Below are positions 2,656-30,628 of a DNA stretch of 64,000 nucleotides, one piece after another. The position numbers and the translations under genes are program-made. This DNA comes from Myotis daubentonii. Lineage: Eukaryota > Chordata > Mammalia > Chiroptera > Vespertilionidae. Position 1 is the first letter of the stretch, and each line of letters begins with the position of its first letter. The notes under the pieces were generated by a model. It was given only the letters and a program-made list of their open reading frames with translations, searched no databases and was not told the DNA's origin. Where the stretch lies: assembly GCF_963259705.1 (NCBI RefSeq), contig NC_081840.1:144009549-144073548 (forward strand). Reading direction: 5' to 3'.

Positions 2656-3145
2656 ACACCATATATATATGCATTTGAATATTTAATTTCCCACCATTTC
2701 AGAGAACTTCCTGTAGGGCTTGAGGGTTAATGGAAGGAATGGGATCTCCTTAATAAGTGGTTTCCATGCTAAAGAAACAAGAATGCATTTTTGACTGACA
2801 TCGCTTAGTCTTTGAACCAGGGACAGATGATGAGGAAGGAACAATGTATCTTCCTGCCTTAATTTGGGTCATCAGATGTGTTCTAGTTCAGGGAATAAAA
2901 GTTATGTCAGCCAGTAAGTGGTGAAAACCAATTAATCCTAGTCAGCGTGTGTCCATTAAATAGTTCATAGGCTGGGAGAGGTCACAGCAGAAGTAGATAA
3001 CTAAAAGCTTTATTCAAACATAGGCCTAGTGTTAATTATATAAAGAATCTTTATTTGATACACAGAAAGCTGATCTTTCACTGAAAATTTTGTTTTGTTT
3101 GTTTCTTTAAAATGAATTCCCTCATTTGTGCTGTGGATTTTTCAG

Positions 3146-3197
3146 CAAACGTCGCATTGCTGTTGCATGTCCTACATCAGACAACTTAGTCTTCAAG
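3146..3197 (+). CDS. ANKRD26-like: Array exon, unit 1, 52 nt (KRRIAVACPT)
   Basis: The acceptor TTTTTCAG ends at 3145 and the donor GTAAAG starts at 3198. The exon starts with one base that completes a split codon (phase 2) and then encodes KRRIAVACPTSDNLVFK, ending in phase 0. Paralogous exons at 10003 and 23054 have the same length, splice sites and nearly the same peptide. I do not know a function for this short segment. Its invariance across three units, compared with more diverged flanking intron, suggests the coding sequence is or recently was constrained. Confidence 0.72.
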
Positions 3198-3349
3198 GTA
3201 AAGTGCTCTCTTGTGGAATTGATTTTCTTGCTCTCAATTGAATTTTGTGTAACACTTACTCTTAAAATTTCCTAGTGGCCTTTCCTATCATTGTTTTATG
3301 TTTGCAATGTAAAATTAGGCTTTTCATAGTTAAATCCTCCAGCAAGGAA

Positions 3350-3390
3350 ATATTTGTTTGTTTTATTGATTTTAGAGAGAGTGGAAGGGG

Positions 3391-3426
<36 letters not shown>

Positions 3427-3580
3427 TGATGTGAGAAACAAACATTGATTAGCTGCCTCCTGCATGGTCCACAATAGGGATTGAACTGATAACTTGGGAA
3501 TATTGAAATGGGAATTGAACCTGTGACCCTTCAGTGCATGGGTGGACACTCCAAACACTGTGACCCACAGGCCACAGTGC
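3350..3580 (-). mobile_element. Old Ves-type SINE with (GA)n tract, array-shared
   Basis: Diverged minus-strand tRNA-like SINE containing a GA tract at about 3395-3421. It occupies the same place 3' of the 52-nt exon in units 2 and 3, so it predates array amplification. The GA tract is shortest in this unit. Confidence 0.7.
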
Positions 3581-3919
3581 AAAATATATTTACTTTATTG
3601 TATGATTCCTTTTATATGCAATTGCCCCAATAAGTGAGTCCATTGAAGCAGACATCAGACAAGTGTTTGACAGAGACTGGGTAGGGGAATGGAGATTTCC
3701 TATTTCATGAGAATGAGGTTCCCTTCTGGAGTGATGAAGGGTTTTGGAACCAAATAGAGGTGATCAGTGCACAACATGGTACATGTGCCAAATGCTTCTG
3801 GATTTTTCACTTTAAAATGGTTGATGTTCATTGAAGATAAATCACTAAGAAAAGAATACTGTCATAATCAATCAATAGAATTAAGATCATGTCACACACC
3901 TTTTAAAATAATCCAATAG

Positions 3920-4073
3920 GCCCTTGGGCGGCAAACCACGGCTCTGGAGCTACAAGCGGTTCTTTGGCCCCTTGAGTGTGGGTCTTCCACAAAATACCGC
4001 CATACTCAAGGGGCCAAAGAGCCACATGTGGCTCATGAGCTGCGGTTTGCCGAGCCGTAAGTTTGCCGACCAC
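3920..4073. mobile_element. Non-autonomous hAT relic with arms in inverted orientation
   Basis: The ends read GGCGGCAAACC... and ...GGTTTGCCGACCAC, and two inverted arms contain CCTTGAGTGTGG and ACTCAAGGGGCCAAAGAGCC. This matches the terminal pattern of the hAT elements of vesper bats. It is flanked by tccaatag (3912-3919) and ttcattag (4074-4081), a plausible 8-bp hAT target-site duplication with two mismatches. Units 2 (near 10790) and 3 (near 23855) have the uninterrupted tccaataggctcattt, so they are natural empty sites. Confidence 0.75.
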
Positions 4074-5062: not shown

Positions 5063-5069
5063 TTTTTAA

Positions 5070-8401: not shown

Positions 8402-8578
8402 GTTGAAGAAGAGGAGGAAGTGAAAAGTAGAAAAAGGGAAACGTCAAAAAGCATGCATGATGGTGCTGATGATGACGGTAACAATGGTGGACTGAGTCAG
8501 CACAGCAACAGGGAACAAAGTGATAACCAGCAGCCAAAAGATAACATTAATGAGAATGCAGTCATTTTAATGAATAAG
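8402..8578 (+). CDS. ANKRD26-like: Array exon, unit 1, 177 nt
   Basis: The acceptor CATCAAAG ends at 8401 and the donor GTAATA starts at 8579. The exon is 59 whole codons in phase 0-0. The peptide is hydrophilic and acidic: a lysine/glutamate start, a KRETSKSMHDGADDD segment and an INENAVILMNK end. The KREVSENxxDGAD-type motif is, to my knowledge, typical of the linker before the coiled coil in CCDC144/POTE/ANKRD26-family proteins. No transmembrane or enzymatic motif is present. Paralogues are at 21280, 21566 and 29719. Confidence 0.75.
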
Positions 8579-8687
8579 GTAATAACAAACCCAAATGATA
8601 AAAGACAAGTGACAGAACTAATGACAACACACTCCTTTTAATGAATAAGGTAATAACAATATCCTCAATATCAAACTTTCATCAAAG

Positions 8688-8851
8688 GTTGAAGAACAAG
8701 AGAAAAAGTCAAGTAGTAAAAGGGAAGTGTCAGATAACATGCATGATGGTGCTGAAGAAAACAGTGACAATGTTGGTGTGAGGCAGAAAGGCAACATGGA
8801 ACAAAGTGAGAAGCAGCAGGTTCCTATTAAGGAGAAAGAAAATTCTCATAG
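8688..8851 (+). CDS. ANKRD26-like: Array exon, unit 1, 164 nt
   Basis: The acceptor CATCAAAG ends at 8687 and the donor GTAAGC starts at 8852. The exon starts in phase 0 and leaves two bases (AG), which the next 52-nt exon completes. It repeats the plan of the 177-nt exon (KREVSDNMHDGAEENSDN) but ends differently (KEKENSH). It begins 286 bases after the 177-nt exon, the same period seen in the other units, showing that the two exon types arose by local tandem duplication. Confidence 0.75.
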
Positions 8852-9290: not shown

Positions 9291-9711
9291 GGTCAGTACA
9301 TATGTATATATGTAATATTACAGAGGCTAACAACATATACTTTTGTTCTTTGGCATTTGGACATTTAACTTTCCACCATTTCAGGGAAATTACTGTGTGG
9401 TTTGAGGGAGAAAGGAAGGAGTAGGATCTCCTTAATAAGTGGTTTCCATGCAAAAAAAAAGCAAGACTGCCATTTTTGGCTGAGATCAATTAGTCTTTGA
9501 ACCAGGGACAGATGATGAGGAAGGAACAATATATCTTCCAGCCTTAATTTGGGCCATCAGATGTGTTCCACTTCAGGGAATAAAAGTTCTGTGAGCCAAT
9601 AAGTAGTGAAAAAAAATTACTCCAAATCAGAGTGTGCTTGTTAAATACTTCATAGGCTGGGAGAGGTGACAGCAGAAGTAGATAACTAAAAGTTTTTTAA
9701 AACTTAGGCCC

Positions 9712-9877
9712 TTGCCCTAACTGGTTTGGCTCATTGGATTGAGTGTCAGCCTGCGGACTCAAGGGTCCCAGTTTGGAGTCCAGTCAAGGGCATGTATCTT
9801 GGTTGTGTGCACATCCGCAGTAGGGAGTGTGCAGTAGGCAGCTGATAGATGTTTCTCTATCATCGTTGTTTCTAAAA
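9712..9877 (+). mobile_element. Ves SINE private to unit 2
   Basis: Plus-strand SINE beginning TTGCCCTAACTGGTTTGGCTC and ending near TCATCGTTGTTTCT, with a short tail. It splits the sequence that reads ATAGGCCTAGTGTTAATTAT in units 1 and 3, so the insertion followed duplication. Confidence 0.82.
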
Positions 9878-10002
9878 TATAGGCCCAATGTTAATTATAT
9901 AAAGAATCTTTATTTGATATACAGAAAGCTGATATTTCACTGAAAATTTTGTTGCCCTTTTTAAAGACATGGATTCTCTCATTGGTGCTGTGGATTTTAC
10001 AG

Positions 10003-10054
10003 GAAACGTCGTATTGCTGTTGCATGTCCTACATCAGACACTGTAGTCTTCAAG
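10003..10054 (+). CDS. ANKRD26-like: Array exon, unit 2, 52 nt
   Basis: The acceptor GATTTTACAG ends at 10002 and the donor GTAACG starts at 10055. Phase is 2 in, 0 out. The peptide is KRRIAVACPTSDTVVFK, two residues different from unit 1. The split codon at its start becomes arginine (AG+G) rather than serine (AG+C) in units 1 and 3. Confidence 0.7.
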
Positions 10055-10204
10055 GTAACGTGCTCTCTTGTGAAATTAACTTTCTTGCTCTCAATTGAAT
10101 TTTGTGTAACACTTACCCTTAACATTTCCTAGTGGCCTTCCTATCATTGTTTTATGTTTGCAATGCAAAATTTGTCTTTTTATAGTTAAATCCTCAAGCT
10201 GGAA

Positions 10205-10244
10205 AATGTTTTATTGATTTTAGAGAGACTAGATTGATGGGGGG

Positions 10245-10292
<48 letters not shown>

Positions 10293-10445
10293 TTGATGTG
10301 AGTGAAAGACATTGATTGGCTGCTGCCTGCAAGGAGGATGGTCCCCGACAGGGATTTGTCTGACAAACTCTATATATTCCCTGACTGGGAACTGAACCTA
10401 TGACCATCAGTGCATGGGATGATGCTCCATCCATGGAGCCCCACA
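10205..10445 (-). mobile_element. Old Ves-type SINE with (GA)n, unit 2
   Basis: Counterpart of the unit 1 copy at 3350. The GA tract (about 10248-10288) is longer than in unit 1. Confidence 0.65.
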
Positions 10446-11544
10446 GTCCAAAGGGGAAAATATATTTACTTTATTGCATTGTTCCTTTTATATGCAATTT
10501 CCATAATAATTGTGTCAATAGAGACAGAAATGAGACAAGTGTTTGCCAGAGACTGGGTAGGGGGAATGGGAGTTCCTATTTCATGGGAATAAGGTTCCCT
10601 TCTGGATTGGTGAAAGGTTTTGGAACTAAACAGAGGTGATCATTGCAAAACATGGTACATGTGCCAAATTATACTGAATTTTATACTATAAAATGGTATA
10701 TTTTAAATTTGGTGAAGTTTCATCACTAAGAAAAGAATACTGTCATAATCAATCAATCAAATTAAGATCATGTTACACAGCTTTTAAAGCAATCCAATAG
10801 GCTCATTTAAAACATGTCTTCTGGAAAAGGTTACATTGTTCATTTGAGACTTTTCTTATTTCTTGAGGTAGGCCTGTATTGCTGTGAATTTCCCTCTTAG
10901 GACAGCTTCCATCTTGTCCCATAGATTTTGAATTATCATGTTCTCATTTCATTAGTCTCAAGGTATTTTTTGATGTTTCTCCTTGATCTCATTTTTAATT
11001 CATTCACTTTTTAGTAACAGGTTATTTACCCTCCATGTGTTCGTGTGTAATAATTTCTAGTTTGACACCACTGTGGTTGGAGCAGATGTGAGGAATGATT
11101 GCATTCTTCTGAAATTTACCTAGGCTTGTTTTATAGCCTTGCCAGTTCCATGGCCTACCTAAGAACTGTTCCATGTGCACTCAAAGAAAATTTACACTCT
11201 GCATTTTTAGGTTAATAATGCTCTGAACATATCAATAAAATTCATTAGAGTTTTGGTTGGAACTTTTAAGATATATACATTTACCTTATTGATTTTTTTT
11301 TGAAAGATCTATCTACTGATGTCAATGGGGTATTGAACTCCCTAACTTTGATTATATTGATATTTGTTTAATATATTGACGTGCTCCTCTGGCTGATGGA
11401 TATATATTGATAAGGTTTATTTCTTCTTGTTGGATTGATCCCATATCATTATGTATTGACCTTCTTTGTCTCTTTTTATAGCCTTACATTTAACTTCTAT
11501 TTTTTCCTCACATAAGTACTACTTTCCCAGCTTTTTTTCTGGTT

Positions 11545-11735
11545 TGCATTTTAATTAATTTATTTATTTAATTAAATTGTATAGGGATGACATTAGTCTA
11601 CATGAACATATCGGTTCCATGTGGAGATTACTAATTTACAAAATCTGTAAATAGGACCATGTGCCCACCACCCAAATTCAAATCTCCTGTCACCTCATAT
11701 TAGGACACTTTCTTCCCACAACCACTCGTTGTTTG
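11545..11735 (-). mobile_element. L1 3'-region-like fragment
   Basis: The sequence around TTGTATAGGGATGACATTAGTC to CCACCACCCAAATTCAAATCTCC resembles a mammalian L1 3'-untranslated fragment that also occurs at 24600 and 33965. It is flanked by gtttgcatttta-like repeats. Unit 1 lacks it (near 4810), so it inserted in the lineage leading to units 2 and 3. Confidence 0.5.
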
Positions 11736-11769
11736 CATTTTAAGTATTTTAAAAATATGTTTTATTGAT

Positions 11770-12178
11770 TTTTTAAAATATTTTTATTTATTTCAGGGAG
11801 AGAAAGGGAGAGGGATGTACAGATAAAAACACTGATGAGAGAGAAATATCCATCCTCTGCTTTTGCATGCCCCCATGTGCCCTGAAAAGATAACAGATTG
11901 TCACCTCTTTTTTCCTTTGTAAACACTTGACCACTGAGCAACACTGGACAGGTGAACATTTTTTCAGTAGAAATTTTACTGATTGATTTTTAGAGAGAAA
12001 AAGAGAAAGCAAGAGAGACAGACAGAGAGAGAGATAGAAAGAGAGACAACCATTGATTTGTTGTGCGACTTACTTATGCATTCATTGCTTGCTTCTTGTA
12101 TATGTCCTAATGAGAGTTTGAACCAGCAAACTTGCTGTATAGGGACAACACTAGCCAATTCAGCCACCAGTTCGGGCC
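11770..12178 (-). mobile_element. Two old Ves-type SINEs, unit 2
   Basis: Counterparts of the unit 1 SINEs at 4835 and 5070, in the same order and orientation. Confidence 0.55.
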
Positions 12179-12303
12179 TTTTTTGTTTCTATTTTCAGAA
12201 AATATCTTTTTCTATCCTGTTACTATCAGTATGTATGTATGTTTTGCTGATGTTGTTCTCTGGAAGACAGCACATGTAGGGAATTTGTTTTCTTTTTTAA
12301 AAT

Positions 12304-12354
<51 letters not shown>

Positions 12355-12399
12355 TTTTTTATTGCTTAATGTATTACAAAGAGTATTACATATGTCTCT

Positions 12400-15300
12400 T
12401 TTTTTTTTTTCCCCCGCCCTTGACAATCCCCGGGCTTCCCCTACCCCCCAGTGTCTTATGTCCATTGGTTATGCTTATATGCATGCATACAAGTCCTTTG
12501 GTTGATCTCTTACCCACCCCCCCCTGACCTCCCACCCTCCCCGGCCTTCCTGCTGTAGTTTGAGCTGTTCTAGGCAGCTCTGCCTCTGTATCTATTTTTG
12601 TTCATAAGTTTATAATGGTCTTTATTATGCAGAAATCAGTGAGATCATGTGGTATTTTTCCTTCATTGACTGGCTTATTTCACTTAGCATAATGCTCTCC
12701 AGTTCCATCCATGCTGTTGCAAATGGTAAGAGTTCCTTCATTTCACAGCAGCATATTATTCTATTGTGTAGATGTACCACAGTTTTCTAATCCATTCATC
12801 TACAGATGGGCACTTAGGCTGTTTCCAGATCTTAGCTATGGTGAATTGTGCTGCTATGAACATATGGGTGCATATATCCTTTCTGACTGGTTTTTCTGGT
12901 TTCTTGGGATATATTCCTAGAAGTCAAATGGGAGTTCCATTTGTAGTTTTTTGAGGAAATTCCATACTGTCTTCCATAGTGGCTGCACCAGTCTGCATTC
13001 CCAACAGTAGTGCACAAGTGTTAATTTTTCTCCACATCCTCTCCAGCACTTGTCGTTTGTTGATTTGTTGATGATAGCCAGTCTGACAGGTGTGAGATGG
13101 TACCTCATTGTTGTTTTGATTTGCATCTCTCAGATGATTAGTAACTTTGAGCATGTTTTCATATGTCTCTTGGCTTTCTGAATGTCCTCTTTTGCAACGT
13201 GTCTATTTAGGTCCTTTGCCCATTTTTTGATTGGATTGTTTATCTTCCTTTTGTTAAGTTGTATGAGTTCCCTATAAATTTTGGAGATTAGGCCCTTATC
13301 AGATATGACATTGGTAAATATGTTTTCCCACGCAGTGGGTTTTCTTGTTGGTTTGTTGATGGTTTCTTTTGCTGTGCAGAAGCTTTTTATTTTGATGTAG
13401 TCCCATTTGTTTATTTTCTCTTTAGTTTCCAATGCCCTAGGAGCTGTATCGGTGAAGATATTGCTTCGGCATATGACTGAGATTTTGTTGCCTTTGGATT
13501 CTTCTAGTTTTTGCATAGTTTCCCCTCGTATATTTAAGACCTTTATCCATTTTGAGTTTATTTTTGTGTATGGTGTAAGTTGGTGGTCTAGTTTCATTTT
13601 CTTGCATGTATCTTACCAATTTTCCCTATACCATTTATTGAAGCGACTATCTTGACTCCATTGTATGTTCTTGCCTCCTTCGTCAAATATTAATTGAGCG
13701 TATTGGTTGGGGCTGATTTCTGGGCTCTCTATTCTATTCTATTCCATTGATCAATATGTCTGTTCTTGTGCCAGTAACAGGCAGTTTTGAGAACAGTGGC
13801 TTTGTAATACAGCTTGATATCTGGTATTGAGATCCCACCTACGTTGTTCTTTCTCAGGATCGCTGCAGCTATTCGGGGTCGTTTTTTATTCCAGATGAAT
13901 TTTTGGAGAGTACATTCTAGGTCTGTGAAATATGCCATTGGTATTTTAATGGGAAGTGTGTTGAATTTATAGATTGTTTTGGGCAGTATGGACATTTTAA
14001 TGATGTTGATTCTACCAATCCAAGAACATGGTATGTTCTTCCATCACTTTATGTCTTCCTCTATCTCTTTTTTCATCGTCCTGTAGTTTTCTGAGAAGAG
14101 GTCTTTTACCTCTTTAGTTAAGTTTATTCCTATGTAGCTTAATTTTCTTGGTGCGATGGGAAATTGGATTACTTTTTTAGTCTTTCTTTCTGCACATTCA
14201 CTATTGGTGTATAGAAATGCCATAGATTTCTTGGCGTTAATTTTGTATCCTGCTGCATTGCCGAATTCTTTTATTAAGTCTAATAGTTTATTGATGGAGT
14301 CTTTAGGGTTTTTTAAGTATAATATCATGTCGTCTGCAAATAAGGACAGTTTTACTTCTTCTTTTCCAATTTGGATGCCTTTTATTTCTTCTTTTTGTCT
14401 AATTGCAATGGCTAATACTTCCAGTACTATGTCAAACAGGAGTGGTGAGAGTGGGCATCCCTGTCTTGTTCCTGTTCTTAGGGCAAATGGTGTTAGTTTT
14501 TTGTCCATTGAGTATGATGTTGGCTGTGGGTTTGTCATATATGGCTTTTATTATGTTGAGGTATGATCCTTCAATTCCCACATTGCTGAGAGTTTTAATC
14601 AGAAATGTTTGTTGGATTTTGTCAAATGCTTTTTCTGCATCAATTTATATGACTATGTGGTTTTTTTTTTCTTTCAATTTGTTTATGTGATGTATCACAT
14701 TTATTGATTTGCGGATATTGTACCATCCTTGCATCCCTGGGATAAATGCTACTTGGTCGTGGTGTATGATCTTTCGGATGTACTGCTGGATCCGATTTGC
14801 TAAGATTTTGTTGAGGATTTTGGCATGTATGTTAATGAGGGATATTGGCCTGTAATTCTCTTACATTGTGTTGTCTTTACCTGGTTTTGGTATTAGGGTG
14901 ATGCTGGCTTCATAGAATGAGCTTTGAAGTGATTATTCCTCTTGGATTTTTTGTAGTAGTCTGAGGAGGATAGGTTTTAGTTCTTCCTTGAATGTTTGGT
15001 AAAACTCCCCTGGGAAGCCATCTGGTCCTGGGCTTTTGTTTGCTGGAAGCGTTTTGATGACTGCTTCAATTTCTTCCATAGTTATTGGCCTATTGAGATA
15101 TTTAGATTCTTCTTGATTAAGTTTTGGAATGTTGTATTTTTCTAGGAATATGTCCATTTCTTCCAGGTTGTCTAGTTTGTTGGAGTAGAGTTGTCTATAG
15201 TATCTTTTAACAATCATTTGTATTTCTGTGGGGTCTGTTGTTATTTCGCCTCTATCATTTCTGATTTTGTTGATTTGGGTCCTTTCTCTTTGCTTCTTGG

Positions 15301-16340: not shown

Positions 16341-16356
16341 TGTTTTTTTTATCCAT

Positions 16357-17336: not shown

Positions 17337-17439
17337 TCTGATTATCTCCCGATGGTTCAAACGTCGAGCGAGTTGCGTGGGCATCGGCTGTGTGCAGTGG
17401 GAGCCTCCCACCACTCTAGTGTCACTGAAGAGCTCTGAC

Positions 17440-18556: not shown

Positions 18557-18629
18557 GTAGGGAATTTGTTTTCTTATCCACCTATCTACTCTATGTCTTT
18601 TGATTGGAGCTTTTAAGATATATACATTT

Positions 18630-18849
18630 GCCCTAACCGGTTTGGTTCAGTGGATAGAGCATTGGCCTGCAGACTGAAAGGTCCCAGGTTCAATTCTGGT
18701 CAAGGGATGTACTTTGATTGCGGGCACATCCCCAGTAGGAGGTGTGCAGGAGGCGGCTGATCGATGTTTCTCTCTCATTGATGTTTCTAACTCTCTATCA
18801 CTCCCCCTTCCTGTCTGTAAAAAATAAAAAAATATATATATTTAAAAAA
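18630..18849 (+). mobile_element. Ves SINE, near-consensus
   Basis: Plus-strand, well-preserved Ves: GCCCTAACCGGTTTGG head, B-box-like GGTTCAATTCTGGTCAAGGG, body with GATCGATGTTTCTCTCTC and an A-rich tail. It is flanked by gatatatacattt on both sides (about 18617-18629 and 18852-18864). It is absent from unit 1 at the matching place. Confidence 0.9.
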
Positions 18850-20034
18850 ATGATATATACATTTACAGGGATTATTGATAGCTACTCGCTTGTTGCTATT
18901 TTATTCTTATAATTATGTCTACGGCCTCTTATTTTTACTTTATATACAAATATCTTTAATGATTGCTCTAATACAATCTTCTTTTTGTGTTATCAACTCC
19001 TTTAGGTACCCTAGAAAGCTCTTTATCTCTTTTCAATATTAAATATGACAGCTTTGCCATGTGGAGTAGTCTTGGATATAGGTCCTTCTTTTTCATCACT
19101 TTGAATATTTTTTTCTAATCATGACCAGCCTGAAATGTGTCTGTTGAGAAGGCCTCTCACAGTCTTATTGGGGCTCCCTTGTAGGTAACTATTTGTTTTT
19201 CATTTCTGCTTCAAAGATCCTCTCTTTGTGTTTAACTTTTGCCATTTTAATTATGAAGTGGCTTGGTCTAGGTCTCTTTCAGTTCATCTTGTTTGAGACT
19301 GCCTTTTCCTGCACTTCTATGTATTTTTCTTCACCAGGTCAGGGAAATCTCAGTCATTTTGTTTCTTTAAATAGATTCTTAATTTTTGGTCTCACTCTCC
19401 TCCTTCTGGTACCCCTATAATGTGGATGTGGCTATGCTTTCTGTTATCCCAGAATTAAAGTTGATTCCTTCTTTTGTATTGTTCATTTCAAGTATTGTAC
19501 TCTTCATTTCTGAATGGATATTTTATGATTCATTTATCCTTTTTTATTTCTTTTGTCATTGTCAAAGTTCTCACTATGTTCCTTTAGCATCTGTGTAACC
19601 ATTTTCTTCAACCTTGAATCTGGTGCATTTCTTCCCTTCATTTCATTTAGCTCTTTTCTCAGGGGATTATCCTATGGTTTTTTGTTTGTTTGTTTGTTTA
19701 TTGTGTGTGTAAGTGTGTTTGTGTGTGTTTCATTTGGTGCATCTTTTGTCTTTTCCTTATTTAAGCTTTCTCTCTGTGTTTGTTTCTAGGAATATGGGTA
19801 GATCTACTATGCCTCCCAGTTTTGGAACAATGGACTAATGTGTTAGGTGTCTTGTCAGGCTCATTGGCACAATCTTTCTGATCATCAGAGCTGGGTGCTC
19901 CTGGAATGTCACTTGTGTGTGTTATGTGAGCTCTCCTTTTGTAGAGTCTTGATGCTGTCCTATTTGTGGATGGGGTTGATGCTCATGCTGGCTGCCCACA
20001 GTGTATGAGATGCTATGTGAAGTCTGACACCATG

Positions 20035-20448
20035 TCAAGTAATACACTCCAGTATGTTGTGGTGCCTTTTGAGACCTTCATTTGGGTGTACTGATTGTGG
20101 AGTAATTGCTTCATGTTCTGTAATTCCCCACTGGAACCTCTTGGGAAGGGGGTGGTGGGCACACGGTTGTATGTCAATGTCAGTCTTTGCCTGTGATTCT
20201 CCCTGGGAGACCTGTGTGGAGCTACAAAGTGATGCAGTGTTTGTGACAGTCTCTGCTAGGCCTAGGTGCACCAGGGAGGGGCAAAGCTGCACAGCAATGC
20301 CTCCTTCCACCAGCACCAAGCCCTGGAGGCAGCTAAGAACAAAGCCCAAATCTCTCTGAGATCCACTTCTGCCTACTAGCTTTCTGTTGGGGTCAATCAC
20401 TGAAAGAGCTCCCATTGGTATGTGAGTCCCAAGAGATAAGTGAGTCAC
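20035..20448 (-). other. 137-codon open frame, unit 2 L1 5' region
   Basis: Paralogue of part of the 302-codon frame in unit 1. It keeps the THIPMGALSVIDPNRKLVG segment and the following GGIAVQL and QAKTDID segments. See 6857-7765. Confidence 0.35.
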
Positions 20449-20719
20449 CAGGTAGGTGTGAATGGTGTTTACTATGTTGATACAGATTCAAACTCAGCTT
20501 CAATTCTGGCTGTGAGGCCACTCAGCAAAAGTCAGAGGCTGTGCTAACAGCAGCTATCATGCACTGGGTACCCAAGGACCTTATGGTTGGGAGGCACTTC
20601 AAAGAGTCATTACTCTAAGGCCAGCAGAAGTCATTAGGCCCCAAAGACCAAGACTAGCTTGCGAATTTGGGGAGCATTACTCACTTTCCAAAATTGTATT
20701 TTAACTAACAATTCATTGG

Positions 20720-21279
20720 CTTCACTCTGCTGCAATGTTGTAGTATGTTAGTTCATATATTTTATAAATGCCATCACTTTTGATACCTTTAAAGATCTTG
20801 AAATAAATTTAAGGCAATGTGGGAAACAATAGCTTTGTGAAGAAAGAGGAAACCTTCCTATTTGCTACTGAGGCACAATGTCACATCCTCTAAATCTATC
20901 TACGTCATGCAAGACCAGCTAGTAAAGACAAAAGTGGGAAATGTTGCATCCTTGTCTTTTTCTTTCATTGTCTCTGATAGATAAATGGGATGGGGGTGAG
21001 GAGGGAAAATGTTAGGTAGCAAAGAGTGGATATAATGTGAATAGAAGCACAAAATTAAGAAAGCTCTTTTAGAAATCTTGGAAAATCTGGCTCCTATACA
21101 GAAACAGAAGTGAAGCATAATTTACAATTTCAATGACCTACTATGATAAAATTAAACATTCAAATATTTTTATTGATTCAAGTCATAGGAATTTCATTAC
21201 TGTAATGAAATTAATGAAAATATAACTTTTGAATGAATAAGGTAATAACAGTAACCATAATATCAAACTTTCATCAAAG
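20720..21279. other. Intron before the exon cluster, unit 2
   Basis: Counterpart of 7830-8401 in unit 1, with the exon-end relic at about 21205-21242. No other feature was seen. Confidence 0.5.
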
Positions 21280-21456
21280 GTTAAAGAAAAAAATAAGCAG
21301 ACAAACAGTAAAAGGGAAGTGTCAGAAAACGTGTATGATGGTGCTAATGAGGACAGTGACAAAAATGGATTGAGACAGCAAATCAACAGTGAACAAACTG
21401 ATTCCCAGCAGCCAAATGGTAAAATTAATGGCAACACAGCCTTCTTAGTGGATAAG
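21280..21456 (+). CDS. ANKRD26-like: Array exon, unit 2, first 177-nt exon
   Basis: The acceptor CATCAAAG ends at 21279 and the donor GTAATA starts at 21457. It has 59 codons, phase 0-0, and is open throughout. The peptide carries KREVSENVYDGANEDSDKNG and ends INGNTAFLVDK. It resembles the unit 3 exon (29719) more than its neighbour at 21566. Confidence 0.73.
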
Positions 21457-21565
21457 GTAATAACAAACACAACTGATATAAGCCAAATGTCAACATTAAA
21501 TAAAACACATTTGTTTTAAAGAATAAGGTGACAATAATATCCTTAATATCAAATTTTCATCAAAG

Positions 21566-21742
21566 GTTAAAGAAAAGGAGAAACAGAAAAGTAGCAAAAG
21601 GGAAGCGTCAGAAAACACATATGATGGTGCTGATGATGACAATGAGAATGATGGATTGAGTCAGCACAGCATCAGGGAACAAACTGATAACCAGCACCCA
21701 AATGATAACATTAATGAAAATGCAGTCATTTTAATGAATAAG
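21566..21742 (+). CDS. ANKRD26-like: Array exon, unit 2, second 177-nt exon (extra copy)
   Basis: Same splice sites, length and phase as the exon 286 bases upstream. The peptide has KREASENTYDGADDDNENDG and ends INENAVILMNK. The segment LSQHS...REQ and the INENAVILMNK end match the unit 1 exon (8402) closely. Unit 2 therefore carries both 177-nt subtypes, whereas unit 1 kept only this one and unit 3 only the other. Confidence 0.73.
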
Positions 21743-21842
21743 GTAATAACAACCCCAAATGATAAAAGCCAAATGACAAAATTAATGAAAACACACTCTT
21801 TTTAATGAATAACGTAATAACCATATCAAACTTTCATCAAAG

Positions 21843-22006
21843 GTTGGAGAACAAGAGAAGAAGACAAGTAGTAAAAGGGAAGTGTCAGGTAACATGCATG
21901 TTGGTGCTGAAGACAACAGTGACAGTGTTGGTGTGAGGCAGAAAAGCAACATTGAACAAAGTGAGAAGCAGCAGGTTTCTATTAAGGAGAAAGAAAATTC
22001 TCATAG
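21843..22006 (+). CDS. ANKRD26-like: Array exon, unit 2, 164 nt
   Basis: The acceptor CATCAAAG ends at 21842 and the donor GTAAGC starts at 22007. Phase is 0 in, 2 out, and the exon is open. The peptide is nearly the same as the unit 1 164-nt exon, with KREVSGNMHVGAEDNSDS and a KEKENSH end. Confidence 0.74.
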
Positions 22007-22460
22007 GTAAGCCTATAGCAGTATTTAGCAGTAGGTAATTATTCTTTTCCTATAAAACCAATTCCAATTTGAGCTGATATTCATGATTAACAAATTTATA
22101 TGTATACTAGATGGAACCTTGCTTGCTGATCACAACCAAATGCCTATCAACAAACAATGAGATGCCATTGTTTCAAGTTATAATGATAATTATTGTCTGT
22201 AAAAAATAAAAGCCAGAATTGTCCCATGAGAAGAAAAAGGCAGTCTCCTGGACTATTGGTATATGAAATTAGAACACCTTTTAGAAGGGTAATTGAGCTT
22301 GTTTCAAAAATTCAAGTATGTCATTCCTTACGCAATAGCTTCACTTCCAGAACTAGATTCTACATGAAAACATGACTTGTATAAACATACACACACGCAG
22401 TCAAAGGACATTTATTTTATGTTATTATGTGTATAAAACATACAGTAGGTCAGCACATGT
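22007..22460. other. Intron, tail of unit 2
   Basis: Counterpart of 8852-9290. No coding or RNA signal was seen. Confidence 0.45.
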
Positions 22461-22466: not shown

Positions 22467-22545
22467 ATATATATATATATAGTTTTACATATATATATAA
22501 CTGTATTCATATATATATATTTGTATATATATATATATATATATT
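22467..22545. repeat. (AT)n-rich microsatellite at the unit 2/3 junction
   Basis: Several TATATATA runs that replace the shorter tract at the matching place in unit 1 (about 9296-9320). Confidence 0.8.
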
Positions 22546-23053
22546 TACATAGGCTAATAAAATATACATTTGTTCTTTGACATTTGGACATTTAACTTCC
22601 CAGCATTTCAAGGAAATTATTGTGTGTTTGGAGGACAAAAGGAAGTTGTAGGATCTCCTGAATAAGTGGTTTCCTTGCGAAAAAAAACAAGACTGCCATT
22701 TTTGACTGAAATTAATTAGTCTTTGAACCAGGGACAGATGATGAGGAAGGGACAATGTATCTTCCTGCCTTGATTTACGTCATCATATGTGTTCCAGTTC
22801 AGGGAATAAAAATTATGTCAGCCAGTAAGTGGTGAAAACAAAGTAATCCTAGTCAGAGTGTGTTCATTAAATACTTCATAGGCTGGGAGAGGTGACAGCA
22901 GAAATAAAAAACTAAAAGCATTGTTTAAACATAGGCCTAGTGTTAATTATATCAAGAATCTTTATTTGATATACAGAAAGCTGATATTTCACTGAAAATT
23001 TTGTTGCCTTTTTAAAGACATGGATTCCCTCATTGGTTCTGTGGATTTTACAG

Positions 23054-23105
23054 CAAACGTCGCATTGCTGTTGCATGTCCTACATTAGACAATGCAGTCT
23101 TCAAG
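23054..23105 (+). CDS. ANKRD26-like: Array exon, unit 3, 52 nt
   Basis: The acceptor ATTTTACAG ends at 23053 and the donor GTAAAG starts at 23106. Phase is 2 in, 0 out. The peptide is KRRIAVACPTLDNAVFK, two residues different from unit 1. Confidence 0.7.
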
Positions 23106-23264
23106 GTAAAGTGCTCGTTTGTAAAATTGATTTTTTTACACTCAATTGAATTTTGTTTAACACTTACCCTTAAAATTTCCTAGTGGCCTTCCTATCATTT
23201 TTTTATGTTTGTAATGCAAAATTAGTCTTTTTATAGTTAAATCCTCAAGCTGGGAAATGTTTAT

Positions 23265-23296
23265 TTTTGTTTTATTGATTTTATAGAGAGTAGAGG

Positions 23297-23358
<62 letters not shown>

Positions 23359-23515
23359 TTGATGAGAGAGAAAGACATTAATTGGTTGCCGCCTGCAAGG
23401 AGGATGGTCTCTGACAGGTATTGATCTGACAACCTGTATATATGCCCTGACTGGGAATTGAACTTATGACCCTTCTGTGCATGGGACGATGCTCCATCCA
23501 CTGAACCCCACAGTC
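23265..23515 (-). mobile_element. Old Ves-type SINE with long (GA)n, unit 3
   Basis: Counterpart of the copies at 3350 and 10205. The GA tract (about 23302-23354) is the longest of the three, so the tract has changed length independently in each unit. Confidence 0.65.
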
Positions 23516-23919
23516 CAAAGCGGAAAATGTATTTACTTTATTGCATGATTCCTTTTATATACAATTTCCACAATAAGTGAGTCGATATTGATAGAAATCG
23601 GACAAGTGTTTGCCAGAGACGGGTAGGGGGAATGGGAGTTCCTATTTCATGGGAATAAGGTTCTCTTCTGGATTGGTGAATGGTTTTGGAACTAAATAGA
23701 GGTGATCATTGCACAACATGGTACATGTGCCAAATGATACTGAATTTTATACTTCAAAATGGTATATTTAATGCTTGGTGAAGTTTAATCACTAAGAAAA
23801 GAATACTGTCATAATCAATCAAATTAAAATCATGTTACACACCTTTTAAAGCAATCCAATAGGCTCATTTAAAACATGTCTTCTGGAAAAGGTTACATTG
23901 TTCATTTGAGACTTTTCTT

Positions 23920-24600
23920 ATTTCTTGAGGTAGGCCTGTATTGCTGTGAATTTCCCTCTTAGGACAGCTCCCATGTTGTCTCATAGATTTTGAATTATCA
24001 TGTTCTCATTTCATTAGTCTCAAGGTATTTTTTGATTTTTGCCTTGATCTCATTGATAACCCCTTCACTGTTTCATAACAGGTTATTTACTCTTCATGTG
24101 TTTGTGTGTAATTGATTTCTAGTTTGACACCACTGTGGTTGGAGCAGATGTGAGGAATGATTGCAGTCTTCTGAAATGTACTGAGGCTTGTTTTATAGCC
24201 TTACATTTGGCCTATCTAGGAACTGTTCCATTTGCACTTGAAGAAAATTTATACCCTGCATTTTTAGGTTAATAATGCTCTGAACGTATCAACAAAATTC
24301 ATTGGAGTTTTGTTTGGAGCTTTTAAAATACATACATTTACCTTCTTGCTTTTTTTTTTTTTAAGATCTATCAATGTCAAAGGGGTACTGAACTTCCTAA
24401 CTATGATTGTACAGATATTTGCTTTATATATTGAAGTGCTCCTCTGGTTGGTGCATATATGTTCATAAAGGTTATTTCTTCTTATTGGATCGGTTCCATA
24501 TTGTTATGTAATGACCTTCTTTGTCTCTTTTTATAGCCTTACATTTAACTTCTATTTTGTCTGACATAAGTATAGCTATCCCAGCTCTTTTTGTGTTTGC
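23920..24600 (-). mobile_element. Old LINE-1, unit 3, first part
   Basis: ORF2 part of the array-shared old L1. It is cut at 24600 by the L1 3'-like fragment and the provirus, and resumes at 28112. Confidence 0.68.
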
Positions 24601-24603
24601 ATT

Positions 24604-24635
<32 letters not shown>

Positions 24636-24766
24636 ATTTTATTGGGGTGACATTAGTCAATATGAGCATATAGGTTTCTTGTGTGTGGATTATTAATTTA
24701 CAAAATCTGTATATAGGACCATGTGCCTACCACCCAAAGGCAAATCTTCTCTTGTCTCCTCATATT
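24600..24766 (-). mobile_element. L1 3'-region-like fragment, unit 3
   Basis: Counterpart of 11545-11735, starting with a (TTTA)n tail. It is interrupted at 24767 by the provirus LTR. Confidence 0.5.
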
Positions 24767-25223
24767 TGTATGGAGGGGTCTCTCTTTTCTGTCACAGCGT
24801 GGAAAGAGAGTGGTCTGGTTATTTGAGTAGAGGCTACTGGGGATTTGAGAAACGAAAGAAGAAGACAAGACACAAAGATGGAAGGAAAAAGCTAGGACCG
24901 GGTGGGACCACCGTCCTCTTCTAAGGGACAGACAGGGACCCAGCACTGAAGCAGTGTGTTTATTTTATACCCCAAATAGCAGGAGGTTTCACCAAAATTC
25001 AAGATAAAGGGGCTTGGCTAGGCAGGAGTCCTATTCATTCCTTAGACTGGATTTATGTAACAAAACCCACTCCCAGACACCTGGGCAAAATGAAATCAAG
25101 CTGAGAACACTTCTGCCTTTTTGGTAAGATGTGTATCCTGGACCTGGCTCTGCCTGTCACCTTGGGTTCAGCTGGTAGTTATTAATTATAAATGCCCATG
25201 TGCCTTTCCAGGGGCCCTCTACA
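24767..25223 (-). mobile_element. 3' LTR of a class II (betaretrovirus-like) provirus
   Basis: A 457-bp block that reads TGTAGAGGG... to ...CCATACA on the minus strand, so it has TG/CA ends. A polypurine tract (AAAAACGGGGGAGA on the minus strand, 25224-25237) adjoins its 5' side, as expected for a 3' LTR. A TATAAAATAAA sequence on the minus strand (about 24960-24970) could supply promoter and polyadenylation signals. Confidence 0.8.
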
Positions 25224-25239
25224 TCTCCCCCGTTTTTAA

Positions 25240-26900
25240 ACATATCTTGTGGACATCTACTTGGAGCCTTCAGACTTGAGATCACAGGAGCTTGCTGATG
25301 AGTGGGGAAAAAAAAAGGATAAGATTAGTAGTACACAAAGGAATCCAATTAGGTACCAGGTGGTGTTTTTTAATATATTCCATGCATTAAATTCTTTTAA
25401 ATCATCCAGCAATTCTTTTGCTAGTTTTGCTTGAGATAGAATATCATCATGACTATTCTGAATGGTTTGCACATGTTTGTGTAGCCGCACTAGGTCTATA
25501 CTGATATTATTATGATGCCATATTCACTGTAGATGCATCTTGATGTTATTCGAATCCCATAGAGAACTGTTATAGTGGGCTGAAATCACACAAATATATG
25601 TAAAGGCAGCATGACACTGCAGCTGCTGTCTAATCTTGATGCTTTCTAATTGATTACTTAGTCCTATCACTACAGCTTCCAAAGCATTTAGCTTTGTTCT
25701 AGCCTTTTGTCTATATCTTCTTGATCATGAAATGTGGTTGAGGTGTTGTGAGCCAATTCATTGACAAGCTTCGCATTCTGGATGCTTTGGGTCAATGCAA
25801 GAGAAGAAGTTATAGCAGATGCAATAACAGCAACTAGTTTAACAATACCAAAAATAATAAGTCCCAAAGCACGCTTTTCCCGGGACAATTGTGTAATTCC
25901 TGCAATGCCTGAAGGCCTGCACCATGATACGATTTTTCTGTTATATTGGTAGGAAGCATAATAAAAGAAGACTGATTTAAAATTTATATATCCTCATTCA
26001 GGTTATGCCTAGAAACGCAGCTGGTAAGGTTACAGTGATGGCATTGGACAGCATAAAGTTTTCCAATCTGTTGATGTTCACATTTCCAGTTACCAATACA
26101 TATGGGGGCTGGGCACAAGCTCATAGCCATAGCAAGGGCTCGATGAACAGCTCCTTTAGTATTAGCTAAGAAAGAGCCAGTAAAATTAAGAAAGTCAAGG
26201 GCAGCAGCTAACAGCCGTGGATCTTTCTGTAAATTTCCTGTTTTCATGGTCAGGGCATTACTTACAAAACCTCCTGGTAACATAGGCTCATAATGGGGAT
26301 ATTTAACATCAAGCCTGTGGGACCAACCCAATACATAGAAGTCAGAGCCAGAAATAGTATGTCTCAGTGGTATAGGATTGGCATAATCCTGCCATTGAGG
26401 ACATGCTCCCAACTCAGTAGTGGTGCTATTAGGGCACGAAGGGGGCAGGGGATGCTTATCAGACAGCCATCCGGTGGCCTTAGGAAATCCTAGTTTAGTA
26501 ACTGTCTGAATATGTTTTCCCATATCCCAATGTTTGCGCCTCCAGAGGATGTCTTATTTTCTTGGCCAAGCTGCAAACATCCTGAAGTCCCCCTTTTAGA
26601 TAAACAAATAGGGAGCTCCCCACTAAAACCATTATAAGTATAATCACCTTGGGAAGAAGGAGTTATAGGCTTGTTGGAGATACCCCGGACCGGGTTAGTG
26701 TTATAGGTAAATACTGGCACTGATTCTCTGGTACAGGTGGCTGGATTGACCATAGCGGGGTCTGGAACATAAGTCCAGTATGTTTCTGCTGCAGCCATAC
26801 CTACCTGACAGCTGACAAGCGCCAGCATAGCAACAAAAAGGTTGGAGGGGGTTACCTGAACCCACTGTTCATTCACCACTTGCTGAGCATCGGTGGTCAG
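25240..26900 (-). pseudogene. Endogenous betaretrovirus-like env, broken
   Basis: Env mediates receptor binding and membrane fusion in the living virus; here it is a disrupted endogenous copy. On the minus strand there is a surface-subunit start with a hydrophobic signal-like segment (26490-26879), the rest of the surface subunit in another frame (25984-26523), a furin-type site (REKR) followed by a hydrophobic fusion-peptide-like stretch (25688-25888), and a membrane anchor (25257-25490). At least one frameshift and several stops separate these parts. The class assignment rests on the overall layout and nearby integrase. Confidence 0.78.
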
Positions 26901-27540
26901 CCTCTTCAGTTGACCCCATGTGGGGACACTAGCTCCTCAGGTGGCCTTGGCCAGCTGCCTTCTGCTTTTCTCCTTCTTCGGGGCCGGTGGCTGAGCTGCC
27001 ATCATCACCGGATGTGTGATCTTCAGCTTCTGGAATGGCAGGGTGAGCTGTTCTCCCTGGATCCATGGTCGTGACACACCGCTGGCTCTGGCACCCAGAT
27101 GGGGTTAGAAGCACCTTCTGGAAAGATACAAACATGGCCTCTTCTCCACATCATTACTGGATCTGGCCCTCTCCACTGCCCTGTTCGTAAATCCTTCCAT
27201 CGTGCCATACCGGCAGATGTCACGGGACCAGGAGGTTGATGCCTCCTCTCGGCTGCTGTGTGACACTTATTGTCAAAACTTAAAGTGTAAAGGGCATGAT
27301 TTAACTGATTCTGTGAAGTAGGATAATACCCCTCTCCCCCTTTCTGTTTTTGTAACTGAGTCTTTAAGGTTTGATTAGCTCTTTCTACAATTGTCTGTCC
27401 CTGAGGATTATAGGGAATTCCTGTTTTATGTATTATTTGGTACTGCTTGCGAAACTGCTGAAAGGAGAAGCTAGTCAGTATAGGCAGTTCCATTATCTGT
27501 TTTTATCTCTCGGGGCCATCCCTTGACTGAAAAAGCCTCT
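26890..27540 (-). pseudogene. Endogenous betaretrovirus-like pol, integrase C-terminal part
   Basis: Frame 27023-27493 on the minus strand shows an integrase core remnant (GIPYNPQGQ), a downstream tryptophan-containing C-terminal domain (WKDLRTGQW) and an overlap with the env leader frame (26929-27135). The rest of pol, gag and the 5' LTR are absent; the provirus stops at the SPIN element. Confidence 0.75.
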
Positions 27541-27544
27541 AGGC

Positions 27545-27851
27545 CATCGGTTCTCTACCTGTGGGTCACCAACGTGTGGGTTGCGACTGCTTTGGGGGTC
27601 GAAGGACCCTTTCACAGGGGTCGCCTAAGACCATCGGAAAACACATATATAATTACATATAGTTTTTGTGATTAATCACTATGCTTTAATTATGTTCAAT
27701 TTGTAACCATGAAAATACATCCTGCATGTCAGATATTTACATTACAATTTATCACAGTAGCAAAATTACAGTTATGAAGTAGCAATGAAAATAATTTTAT
27801 GTTTGGGGGTCACCACAACATGAGGAACTGTTTTAAAGGGTCGCAGCATTT
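27545..27851 (+). mobile_element. SPIN (Space Invaders) hAT element, non-autonomous, 3' end lost
   Basis: The start CGGTTCTCTACCTGTGGGTC and the segments GGGGTCGCCTAAGACCATCG, GTGATTAATCACTATGCTTT and GGGGGTCACCACAACATGAG match the SPIN hAT family as I know it. The 3' terminal inverted repeat that should follow GGGTCGC(A/G)GCATT is missing, and the sequence passes directly into array-unit DNA. SPIN is a well-documented case of horizontal transfer among tetrapods, including vesper bats. Confidence 0.88.
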
Positions 27852-27869
27852 CATTTAGCTCTTTCTTTT

Positions 27870-28094
27870 TTTTTTTTTTTTGAAATATATTTTATTGATT
27901 TTTTACAGAGAGGAAGGGAGAGAGGTAGAGAGTTAGAAACATCGATGAGAGAGAAACTTCAATCAGCTGCCTCCTGCACATCCCCCACTGGGGATGTGCC
28001 TGCAACCCAGGTACATGCCCTTGAGCGGAATCGAACCTGGGACCCTTCAGTCCCAGGCTGGCGCTCCATCCACTGAGCCAAACCGGTTTTGGCA
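27870..28094 (-). mobile_element. Ves SINE with perfect 17-bp target-site duplication
   Basis: Minus-strand, near-consensus Ves from the T-rich tail to AACCGGTTTTGGC. It is flanked by atttagctctttctttt at 27853-27869 and 28095-28111. Unit 2 (near 19640) has an uninterrupted, slightly diverged version of the site. Confidence 0.92.
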
Positions 28095-28111
28095 ATTTAG
28101 CTCTTTCTTTT

Positions 28112-29160
28112 GGGGGATTTATCCTGTATTGTTTTATTTTGTTTTGTTTTGTTTTTGTGTGTGTTTTCATTTGGGGCATCGTTCTTCTTCTCCCCATTTA
28201 AGCTACCACTTTGTATTTGTTTCTATGAATTGGATTGACATACTATGTCTCCCAGTCCTAGTAAAATGGACTTATGTGTTAGGTGTCTTGTCAGGCTCAT
28301 TGGCATCATTCTTTCTGATCACCTAAGCTGGGTACTCCAGGAATATCACTTGTGTGTGTTATGTGATCCCTCCTTTGTAGAGTCTTAATGCTTGCCTATT
28401 TGTGGATGGGGTTGATGCTCACGCTGGCTGACCACAGTGTATGAGATGCTATGTGAAGGCTGGCCCCATGTCAATTAATACATGCCAGTATGTTGTGGTG
28501 CCTGTTGAGATCTTCATTTGGGTGTACTGATTGTGGGGCAATTGCTTCATGTTCTGTAGCTCCCCATTGGAGCCTCTTGGGAAGGGGGTGGTGGGCACAC
28601 GGTTGTATGTCAATGTCAGTCTTTGCCTGTGATTCTCCCTGGGAGACCTGTGTGGAGCTACAAAGTGGTACAGTGTTTGTGACTGGCTCTGCTGGGCCTA
28701 GGTGCACCAGGGAGGGGCCAAGCTGCACAGCAATGCCTCCTTCCACCAGCACCAAGCCCTGGAGGAAGCTAAGAACAAAGCCCAAATCTCTCTGGGATCC
28801 ACCTCTGCCTACTAGCTTTCTGTAGGGGTCAATCACTGAAAGAGCTCCCATTGGTATGTGAGTCCCATGAGGTAAGTGAGCCATCAGGTAGGTGTGAATG
28901 GTTCTTCCCATGTTGATACAGATTCAAGCTCAGCTTCATTGCTGGCTGTGTGGCCACTCAGCAAAAGTCACAGGCTATGCAAATAACAGCTATCACGCAC
29001 TGGGTACACATACCTTATGGTTGGGGGCCACCTCAGAGAGTCATTACTGTAAGGCCAGCAGAATTCATCAGGCCCTAAAGACGAAGACTTGGCAGTGTGA
29101 CATTAGGGGGGCATTACACACTTTCTCAAATTGTACTTTAACTAACAATTCATTGGCCTC
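28112..29160 (-). mobile_element. Old LINE-1, unit 3, second part (5' region)
   Basis: Aligns with unit 1 from about 6840 to 7800 and unit 2 from about 19660 to 20700. It contains the 146-codon open frame at 28471-28911. Confidence 0.68.
28471..28911 (-). other. 146-codon open frame, unit 3 L1 5' region
   Basis: Paralogue of the frames at 6857-7765 and 20035-20448, with THIPMGALSVIDPYRKLVG and GGIAVQLGPSLVHLG retained. No family was recognised. Confidence 0.35.
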
Positions 29161-29718
29161 ACAATGCTCCTATATTGTAGTAAACTTTGGTTCATATATT
29201 TTATAAATGCCACACTTTTTTGATATCTTTAAAGATCTTGGACAATGTAAAAGGCAATATAGGAAACAATAGCTTCTTGAAGAAAGAGGAAAGCTTCCTC
29301 TTTGTTACTGAGGCACAATGTTACATCCTCTAAATCTGTGTAATGCAAGTCACAGGTGGGAAAGACAAAAGAAGCATATTTGCATTTTTTGTCATTTATT
29401 TTATTGTTTCTGTGAGATAAATGGGATGGGGTAAGTATGGGGAATATTAGGTAGCAAAGGGTGGATTTTGTGTGAATAGGAGCACAAAATTAAGAAATCA
29501 CTCTTAGAAGTCTTGGAAAATTTGGCTTCTATACAGAAACAGACACAAAGCAGTATTTAGAGCAATTTCAATGACCTTTTATGATCAAATAAAACACTCA
29601 AAATATTTTCACTGATTCAAGTCATAGCAGTTTCATTAATATCATGAAATTAATGAAAACAGAATCTTTTGATGAATAAGGTAATAACAATATCTTTAAT
29701 ATCAAACATGCATCAAAG
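29160..29718. other. Intron before the exon cluster, unit 3
   Basis: Counterpart of 7830-8401, with the exon-end relic at about 29650-29686. Confidence 0.5.
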
Positions 29719-29895
29719 GTTGAAGGAGAAAATGAGCAGAGAAGCAGTATAAAGGAAGTATCAGGAAACATATATGAAGGTGCTGATGATCACAGTGACG
29801 GAAATGGATTGAGACAACAGAGAAACAGTCAACAAACTGATACCCAGCAGTCAAAGGATGAAATTAATGAAAACACAGTCTTTTTCATGAATAAG
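29719..29895 (+). CDS. ANKRD26-like: Array exon, unit 3, 177 nt
   Basis: The acceptor CATCAAAG ends at 29718 and the donor GTAATA starts at 29896. It has 59 open codons, phase 0-0. The peptide has KEVSGNIYEGADDHSDGNG and ends INENTVFFMNK. The LRQQ...QQTDTQQ portion groups it with the unit 2 exon at 21280. Confidence 0.73.
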
Positions 29896-30003
29896 GTAAT
29901 AGCAAAACTAAATCATAAAACCACATGAGAAAGGTAATGAACACACAGTCTTCTTAATGAATAAGGTAATAACAATATTGTCATTGTCAAACTTTCATCA
30001 AAG

Positions 30004-30167
30004 GTTGAAGAAAAGAAGGAGCAGAAAAATAGTAAGAGGGAAGAGTCAGGAAACATGTGTGATGGGGCTAATGATGACACTGACAGTGTTGGAGTGAGAC
30101 AGAAAAGCAACAGTGAACAAAGTGATAAGCACCAGTTTCCTACTGTGGAGAATGAAGACTCTGATAG
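30004..30167 (+). CDS. ANKRD26-like: Array exon, unit 3, 164 nt
   Basis: The acceptor CATCAAAG ends at 30003 and the donor GTAAGC starts at 30168. Phase is 0 in, 2 out, and the exon is open. The peptide has KREESGNMCDGANDDTDS and ends VENEDSD, more diverged from units 1 and 2 than they are from each other. It is the last array exon and its phase fits the next exon at 34381. Confidence 0.74.
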
Positions 30168-30628
30168 GTAAGCCTATAGCAGTATTTAACAGTAGGTAAT
30201 TATTCTTTTCCTATAAAACAAATTCCAAGTTGAGTTAATATTCATGATTAACAAATTTTGAATTTATAGTAGAGTGAACCTTGCTTTCTAATTAGAAAAT
30301 GTTCATCAACAAAAAATGAGATACCATTTTTTTTAACTTATAATAACTAATTATTGTATTTAACAAATAAAACCAGAATTTTCCCACTGGAGGAAAAGGC
30401 ATCCTCATGCACTATTGGTAGATGAAATTACCACATCTTTTTCAAAGGGCAATTGAGCTTTTTTCAAAATGTCATGTACGTCATTCCTTTATCACAATAA
30501 CTTCACTCCCAGAACTAGGTCCTTCATACAAACATAACTAGTATAAACACAAACATACACAGTCTAAGGGTATTTATTAGATGTTATTATGTATATAAAA
30601 CATACAGTAGGTCATTATGTATATAATA
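30168..30628. other. Intron, tail of unit 3
   Basis: Counterpart of 8852-9290. It ends where the HeliBat element begins. Confidence 0.45.

What the first reader, a model, noticed from the sequence alone, without database searches (positions are those of the whole stretch)
2657..30628. Amplified exon module that preserves the reading frame
Three tandem units each carry a 52-nt, one or two 177-nt and a 164-nt exon. Each module enters and leaves in phase 2, so one more or one fewer unit changes the protein by 131 or 190 residues without a frameshift. All ten array exons are open and all splice sites are consensus-like, although introns differ by kilobases of insertions. This looks like a copy-number-variable linker domain in an ANKRD26-family protein.
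Basis: partly seen in the sequence, partly recalled or inferred. Interest (0 to 1): 0.75.

Follow-up and report, generated by a model that had tools for sequence, protein, structure and literature searches.

The report
Amplified linker exons in bat ANKRD26-like gene
A gene in a mouse-eared bat carries three back-to-back copies of a small group of exons that always fit the reading frame, and gene models of related bats carry more copies, so the same protein seems to come with a longer or shorter flexible spacer; similar exon arrays are already known in other genes, including a human relative.

Summary
Ten exons in three tandem units (52-177-164, 52-177-177-164, 52-177-164 nt) are open, GT-AG and phase-compatible. 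Seven downstream exons continue the frame to a stop. [quoted passage not shown] P0006 has ankyrin repeats before the array and a CCDC144C coiled coil after it. Gene models differ in length in frame: 3 units in each of two M. daubentonii genes, 4 in M. yumanensis, 6 in Eptesicus fuscus; canonical ANKRD26 models show one module. Unit 2 is a mosaic: unit-3-like left of about 20.65 kb, unit-1-like right of it, as expected from unequal crossing over. Best reading: a disordered spacer, little constrained in sequence but held in frame, whose copy number turns over by unequal exchange. Variation within a species and transcription could not be tested. The kind is known: human ANKRD30A holds a 4 x 11.1-kb array (PMC2588610).

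The parts
32..65 (+). candidate 34-nt exon upstream of the array (HEMSEEESLY + 2 nt), ends in phase 2
   Evidence: GT-AG, open and in frame with unit 1; counterpart HELSEEDSLCR in M. daubentonii CCDC144C-like P0005; not used in P0006
2650..9299 (+). unit 1 (52-177-164)
   Evidence: blastn between units
3146..3197 (+). unit 1, 52-nt exon
   Evidence: in P0006
8402..8578 (+). unit 1, 177-nt exon (type b)
8688..8851 (+). unit 1, 164-nt exon
9296..22455 (+). unit 2 (52-177a-177b-164), a mosaic of unit-3-like and unit-1-like sequence
10003..10054 (+). unit 2, 52-nt exon (88-nt form starts at 9967)
20613..20681 (+). support interval of the switch from unit-3-like to unit-1-like sequence in unit 2
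   Evidence: logLR 59.5; 0 of 2000 permutations reach it
21280..21456 (+). unit 2, first 177-nt exon (type a)
   Evidence: equally close to the 177 exons of units 1 and 3
21566..21742 (+). unit 2, second 177-nt exon (type b)
21843..22006 (+). unit 2, 164-nt exon
22523..30617 (+). unit 3 (52-177-164)
23054..23105 (+). unit 3, 52-nt exon (88-nt form from 23018 is the one in P0006)
29719..29895 (+). unit 3, 177-nt exon (type c)
30004..30167 (+). unit 3, 164-nt exon, positional orthologue of the last 164 exon in M. yumanensis and E. fuscus
   Evidence: support 99/94
34381..34558 (+). downstream exon D1 (start of CCDC144C region)
35093..35272 (+). downstream exon D2; donor gtgtga weak, 3' end differs from relatives
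   Evidence: in P0006
35827..36765 (+). downstream exon D3, long CCDC144C coiled-coil exon
   Evidence: Pfam PF14915 4.3e-107
38280..38516 (+). downstream exon D4 with an in-frame 42-nt x 3 repeat
42384..42496 (+). downstream exon D5
43740..43857 (+). downstream exon D6
49763..50050 (+). terminal exon D7 with stop
   Evidence: present in P0006-P0009

Best explanation
This is the middle of a protein-coding ANKRD26-like paralogue of Myotis daubentonii in which the exons of a charged, probably disordered linker between ankyrin repeats and coiled coil were amplified at two scales: 286-bp repeats that add or remove one 177-nt (59-codon, phase 0-0) exon, and units of about 7-13 kb that add or remove a whole 52/88-177n-164 module (phase 2-2). 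Because both unit types are multiples of three with matching phases, unequal crossing over lengthens or shortens the spacer without a frameshift. Unit 2 is itself such a product, unit-3-like on its left and unit-1-like on its right. Selection keeps frame and openness but hardly the amino-acid sequence. Shown: anatomy, open frame, mosaic unit, copy-number differences among gene models. Inferred: disorder, spacer function, translation of all units, unequal crossing over rather than conversion.
For: 10 of 10 exons open, phased and GT-AG. Identity with P0006 from the array to the stop except one 12-residue insertion; P0006 carries ankyrin repeats and CCDC144C. Module exons: 7 and 7 in two M. daubentonii genes, 10 in M. 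yumanensis P0009, 15 in E. fuscus P0008 (11 full, 4 short), against 1 in the nine mammalian ANKRD26 or ANKRD26-like models P0011-P0017, P0019, P0020. Tree of 48 modules: last 164 exon orthologous in both genera (99/94), four E. fuscus 177 exons private (99/98), two M. yumanensis 177 exons private (100/99). Mosaic unit 2: 334 of 469 informative sites unit-3-like on the left, 174 of 245 unit-1-like on the right, logLR 59.5, permutation maximum 14.5. 0 stops and 0 indels where neutrality predicts several. AlphaFold2 of E. fuscus array model P0001: pLDDT 44.3, 236 of 276 residues below 50.
Against: dN/dS 0.31-1.92 over 17 comparisons, none distinguishable from 1 by bootstrap; exon and flanking-intron divergence equal in 7 of 7 comparisons, smallest p 0.138. 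Composition is at best weakly held (hydropathy: 109 of 3000 simulations as low; charge: no deviation). Acceptors weak. All relatives are predicted models that share the bias of gene prediction; P0009 contains odd insertions and an L1-type Pfam domain (PF02994), and P0008 an intron-like stretch. The 177a exon is not clearly of unit 1 or unit 3 type, so the exchange was not one simple event there. The low pLDDT rests on 9 aligned rows.
Confidence: 0.78

Rival explanations
1. The array is a decaying, non-functional tract of a young paralogue: exons still open by recency and chance, substitutions neutral, copy number drifting without effect on a protein.
For: dN/dS about 1, exon divergence equal to intron divergence, weak acceptors, D2 donor apparently lost and replaced, no transcript seen.
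Against: Up to 22-27% divergence between copies without a stop (simulated P 0.0085) or an indel; seven downstream exons open to a stop; modules open in three species, with the last unit orthologous across Myotis and Eptesicus, genera separated for over 33 million years if the Oligocene Myotis fossil is right (PMC5342209, abstract seen).
Confidence: 0.15
2. Unit 2 arose by a plain tandem duplication and its mosaic look comes from later gene conversion between units.
For: Conversion gives mosaics too; the 177a region is ambiguous, and a second, weak switch is seen at about 10,161 (logLR 6.7).
Against: One strong switch point with long one-sided stretches on both sides, which is what a single unequal crossover predicts.
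Confidence: 0.25
3. The three units are an assembly artefact of collapsed or duplicated haplotypes.
For: No reads are available here.
Against: Units differ by 11-17% in flanking introns and by kilobases of insertions; a second gene model P0007 has the same order.
Confidence: 0.02

Closest known systems
Human ANKRD30A intragenic tandem array (10p11.21), Table 2B of Warburton et al. 2008, PMC2588610 (section 7 and passages seen)
   Same: A gene I recall as a member of the same ankyrin/coiled-coil family, with an array wholly inside the gene, unit 11.1 kb, 4 copies, each unit carrying exons.
   Different: Copies over 95% alike there; here 11-17% divergent in introns. Homology of the amplified exons between the two genes was not tested.
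NBPF genes (DUF1220/Olduvai), DMBT1, LPA
   Same: Exon-bearing units repeated inside one gene so that copy number changes the protein in frame (PMC2588610).
   Different: The repeated part there is named as a protein domain; here it is a low-complexity, probably disordered linker.
Myotis daubentonii ANKRD26-like P0006/P0007, M. yumanensis P0009, Eptesicus fuscus P0008 and P0001 (public gene models)
   Same: P0006 is this very gene; the others carry the same modules.
   Different: 3, 3, 4 and 6 units in P0006, P0007, P0009, P0008; P0001 is a shorter model with 5 module matches.
Canonical ANKRD26 (P0011, P0012) and CCDC144C-like genes (P0005, P0010)
   Same: One 164-type exon at the corresponding place; P0005 also has the 52-type exon.
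   Different: No amplification; the ANKRD26 models keep the C-terminal domain PF12001, which P0006-P0009 lack.

Membership tests
ANKRD26 family | CCDC144C coiled coil (PF14915) | tested here: met
   E 4.3e-107 for the D3 ORF; also D1, D2, D4 ORFs (D1 scored below the curated cut-off, 29.1 against 35 bits)
ANKRD26 family | N-terminal ankyrin repeats | tested here: met
   not in the window; precomputed Pfam ankyrin domains on the identical model P0006
ANKRD26 (the orthologue itself) | C-terminal PF12001 (DUF3496) | tested here: not met
   absent from the domain list of P0006-P0009, present in P0011 and P0012; hence filed as an ANKRD26-like paralogue
Intragenic, exon-bearing tandem array | several head-to-tail genomic units inside one gene, each with coding exons of matching phase | tested here: met
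Intragenic, exon-bearing tandem array | copy number varies among individuals | not testable with these tools
   only between loci and species
Intragenic, exon-bearing tandem array | transcripts contain the repeated exons | not testable with these tools
   only predicted models seen

The most novel reading that the evidence does not exclude
A mammalian gene uses a two-tier, frame-safe exon array (59-codon exons inside 131/190-codon modules) as a length-tunable disordered spacer: sequence is almost free, frame is guarded, and unequal exchange resets spacer length repeatedly and independently in vesper-bat lineages, probably as a polymorphism within species, with a possible effect on the geometry of a coiled-coil scaffold.
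Probability: 0.3. Interest if true: 0.65.

Novelty: new member of a known kind. Interest (0 to 1): 0.42.

Why it matters
It is a clean natural case of a protein whose length can change in module steps without a frameshift, with the recombinant unit still readable and outgroup species at hand. It would let one ask whether spacer length, rather than spacer sequence, is what selection sees. The public models already contain the exons; I found no description of the array in my paper searches, which cover open-licence papers only and are ranked, capped lists.

Tried and rejected
Positive selection: dN exceeds dS in some pairs (w up to 1.92), but bootstrap does not exclude equality in any, and exons are not faster than their own flanking introns. 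The pooled comparison had suggested faster exons (22.4% against 16.6% in U1-U3), but it sets a type-b against a type-c 177 exon, which are older paralogues, so I dropped that reading.

Purifying selection on composition: weak at best; hydropathy 109 of 3000 simulations as low, hydrophobic fraction 217 of 3000, charged fraction and net charge unremarkable.

Frameshift in D1: suspected at first from the ORF list, rejected because Myotis models read the same frame.

A solved structure for the coiled coil: none at E 0.1. RNA families in the window: none at gathering threshold. Pfam on the array protein: nothing above a curated cut-off.

Whole-genome search for further copies: not completed. The EMBO J paper on ANKRD26 and PIDD1 is not held, so the centriole function is mentioned nowhere here as evidence.

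Full report
What is there. The plus strand of the first 50 kb holds the middle and 3' part of one gene. The ten array exons were located exactly: unit 1 at 3146-3197, 8402-8578, 8688-8851; unit 2 at 10003-10054, 21280-21456, 21566-21742, 21843-22006; unit 3 at 23054-23105, 29719-29895, 30004-30167. All are open in one frame and have AG before and GT after. Lengths 52+177n+164 make whole codons; the 177-nt exons are phase 0-0, the module phase 2-2. The 177-nt and 164-nt exons are related to each other: they sit on a 286-bp repeat (family D2).

The gene. Seven downstream exons carry the frame on to a stop at 50050; four of them hit the Pfam coiled-coil family CCDC144C, D3 with E 4.3e-107 and D1 below the curated cut-off. 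[quoted passage not shown] My model and P0006 agree letter for letter from the first array exon to the stop, except that P0006 has 12 more residues at the start of the unit-3 52-nt exon. Those come from an in-frame acceptor 36 nt upstream that exists in units 2 and 3 but not in unit 1. The 5' neighbour differs: P0006 skips the 34-nt exon at 32-65, whose counterpart is in the CCDC144C-like model P0005. P0006 has ankyrin domains upstream and lacks PF12001, which canonical ANKRD26 has. So it is an ANKRD26-like paralogue.

Copy number elsewhere. A profile of the shared 47 residues found modules in 20 of the 21 proteins returned (recounted; P0018 had none at the cut-off). Counts: P0006 7, P0007 (second M. 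daubentonii gene) 7, P0009 (M. yumanensis) 10, P0008 (E. fuscus) 15 of which 4 short, P0001 (E. fuscus) 5 of which 1 short, P0021 (M. yumanensis CCDC144C-like) 3, and one each in the other 14. By 164-type exons I read 3, 3, 4 and 6 units in P0006, P0007, P0009, P0008. These are predicted models, and P0009 and P0008 contain stretches that look like mis-predicted exons.

History. A tree of 48 modules (12 of 20 proteins; the 5 matches under 41 residues dropped; 47 columns, so many forks are unsure) separates 164 from 177 exons and shows the last 164 exon of M. daubentonii, M. yumanensis and E. fuscus as one clade (99/94), while E. fuscus has four private 177 exons (99/98) and M. yumanensis two (100/99). 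So at least two units predate the split of the genera, and the inner part of the array has turned over since. A label test over species found no overall clustering by species, in line with an old array plus local expansions.

Mosaic unit. Among 714 sites where unit 2 agrees with only one of the other units, 334 of 469 left of 20.65 kb agree with unit 3 and 174 of 245 to the right agree with unit 1; logLR 59.5, largest of 2000 permutations 14.5. One unequal crossover between an old first and an old last unit would give exactly this. Exceptions: the first 400 bp of the unit are undecided, a weak second switch lies near 10.16 kb (logLR 6.7), and exon 177a is equally close to both.

Selection. Nei-Gojobori dN/dS runs from 0.31 to 1.92 in 17 comparisons and never differs from 1 by bootstrap. 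In 7 of 7 local comparisons exons diverge like their flanking introns (smallest p 0.138). Against that, 139 substitutions from family consensus produced 0 stops where a simulation gives a mean of 4.78 (P(0) 0.0085), and 0 indels where the introns show 0.057-0.081 frame-breaking indels per substitution, that is about 8-11 expected. The exons are therefore guarded for frame and openness, not for residues. The simulation uses a star tree from consensus and is approximate, and the pairwise intron rates are not independent.

Mechanism. The array peptides are about 37% charged and 16% hydrophobic, and AlphaFold2 gives no confident structure for the E. fuscus array model P0001 (mean pLDDT 44.3, 9 sequences). 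I infer a disordered spacer between ankyrin repeats and coiled coil whose length is what varies. No function was tested.

Known kind. PMC2588610 (section 7 and passages seen) lists human ANKRD30A with an 11.1-kb unit in 4 copies inside the gene, together with NBPF, DMBT1 and LPA, and states that such copy changes alter the number of repeated domains. PMC11797053 (passages seen) counts ANKRD26/ANKRD62 as a family whose copy number varies with diet in mammals, which concerns gene copies, not exons. PMC3906575 (passages seen) names ANKRD36B among duplicated genes with accelerated exons. No paper in my searches described this bat array.

Noticed in passing
38287-38413: In-frame coding minisatellite in exon D4: 42-nt unit x 3.0, 92% matches; 14-residue unit RQLQGELADTQRKL. 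Three copies in P0006, P0007 and P0009, one in E. fuscus P0008 and M. yumanensis P0004: a second in-frame length variable in the same gene family.
   Followed up: partly
35093-35272: Exon D2 has lost the 3' end seen in Myotis relatives (AHKKVKSE); the frame runs on into a 19-residue tail to a weak donor gtgtga, which P0006 also uses.
   Followed up: partly
8603-8666, 21481-21544, 21767-21830, 29919-29982: Copies of the 3' end of the 177-nt exon (family D9) lie about 71 bp behind array exons outside any predicted exon: relics of earlier rounds of the 286-bp repeat.
   Followed up: no
62904-63643: GC-rich tandem array, period 162, 4.7 copies, 76% matches.
   Followed up: no
51412-55730, minus strand: Long minus-strand ORFs that look like LINE-1 ORF pieces (recognised from memory), downstream of the gene.
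   Followed up: no
outside the window: P0007: A second M. daubentonii gene with the same unit order, on a contig of the same listed length as P0006: a recent duplicate of the whole array gene.
   Followed up: partly
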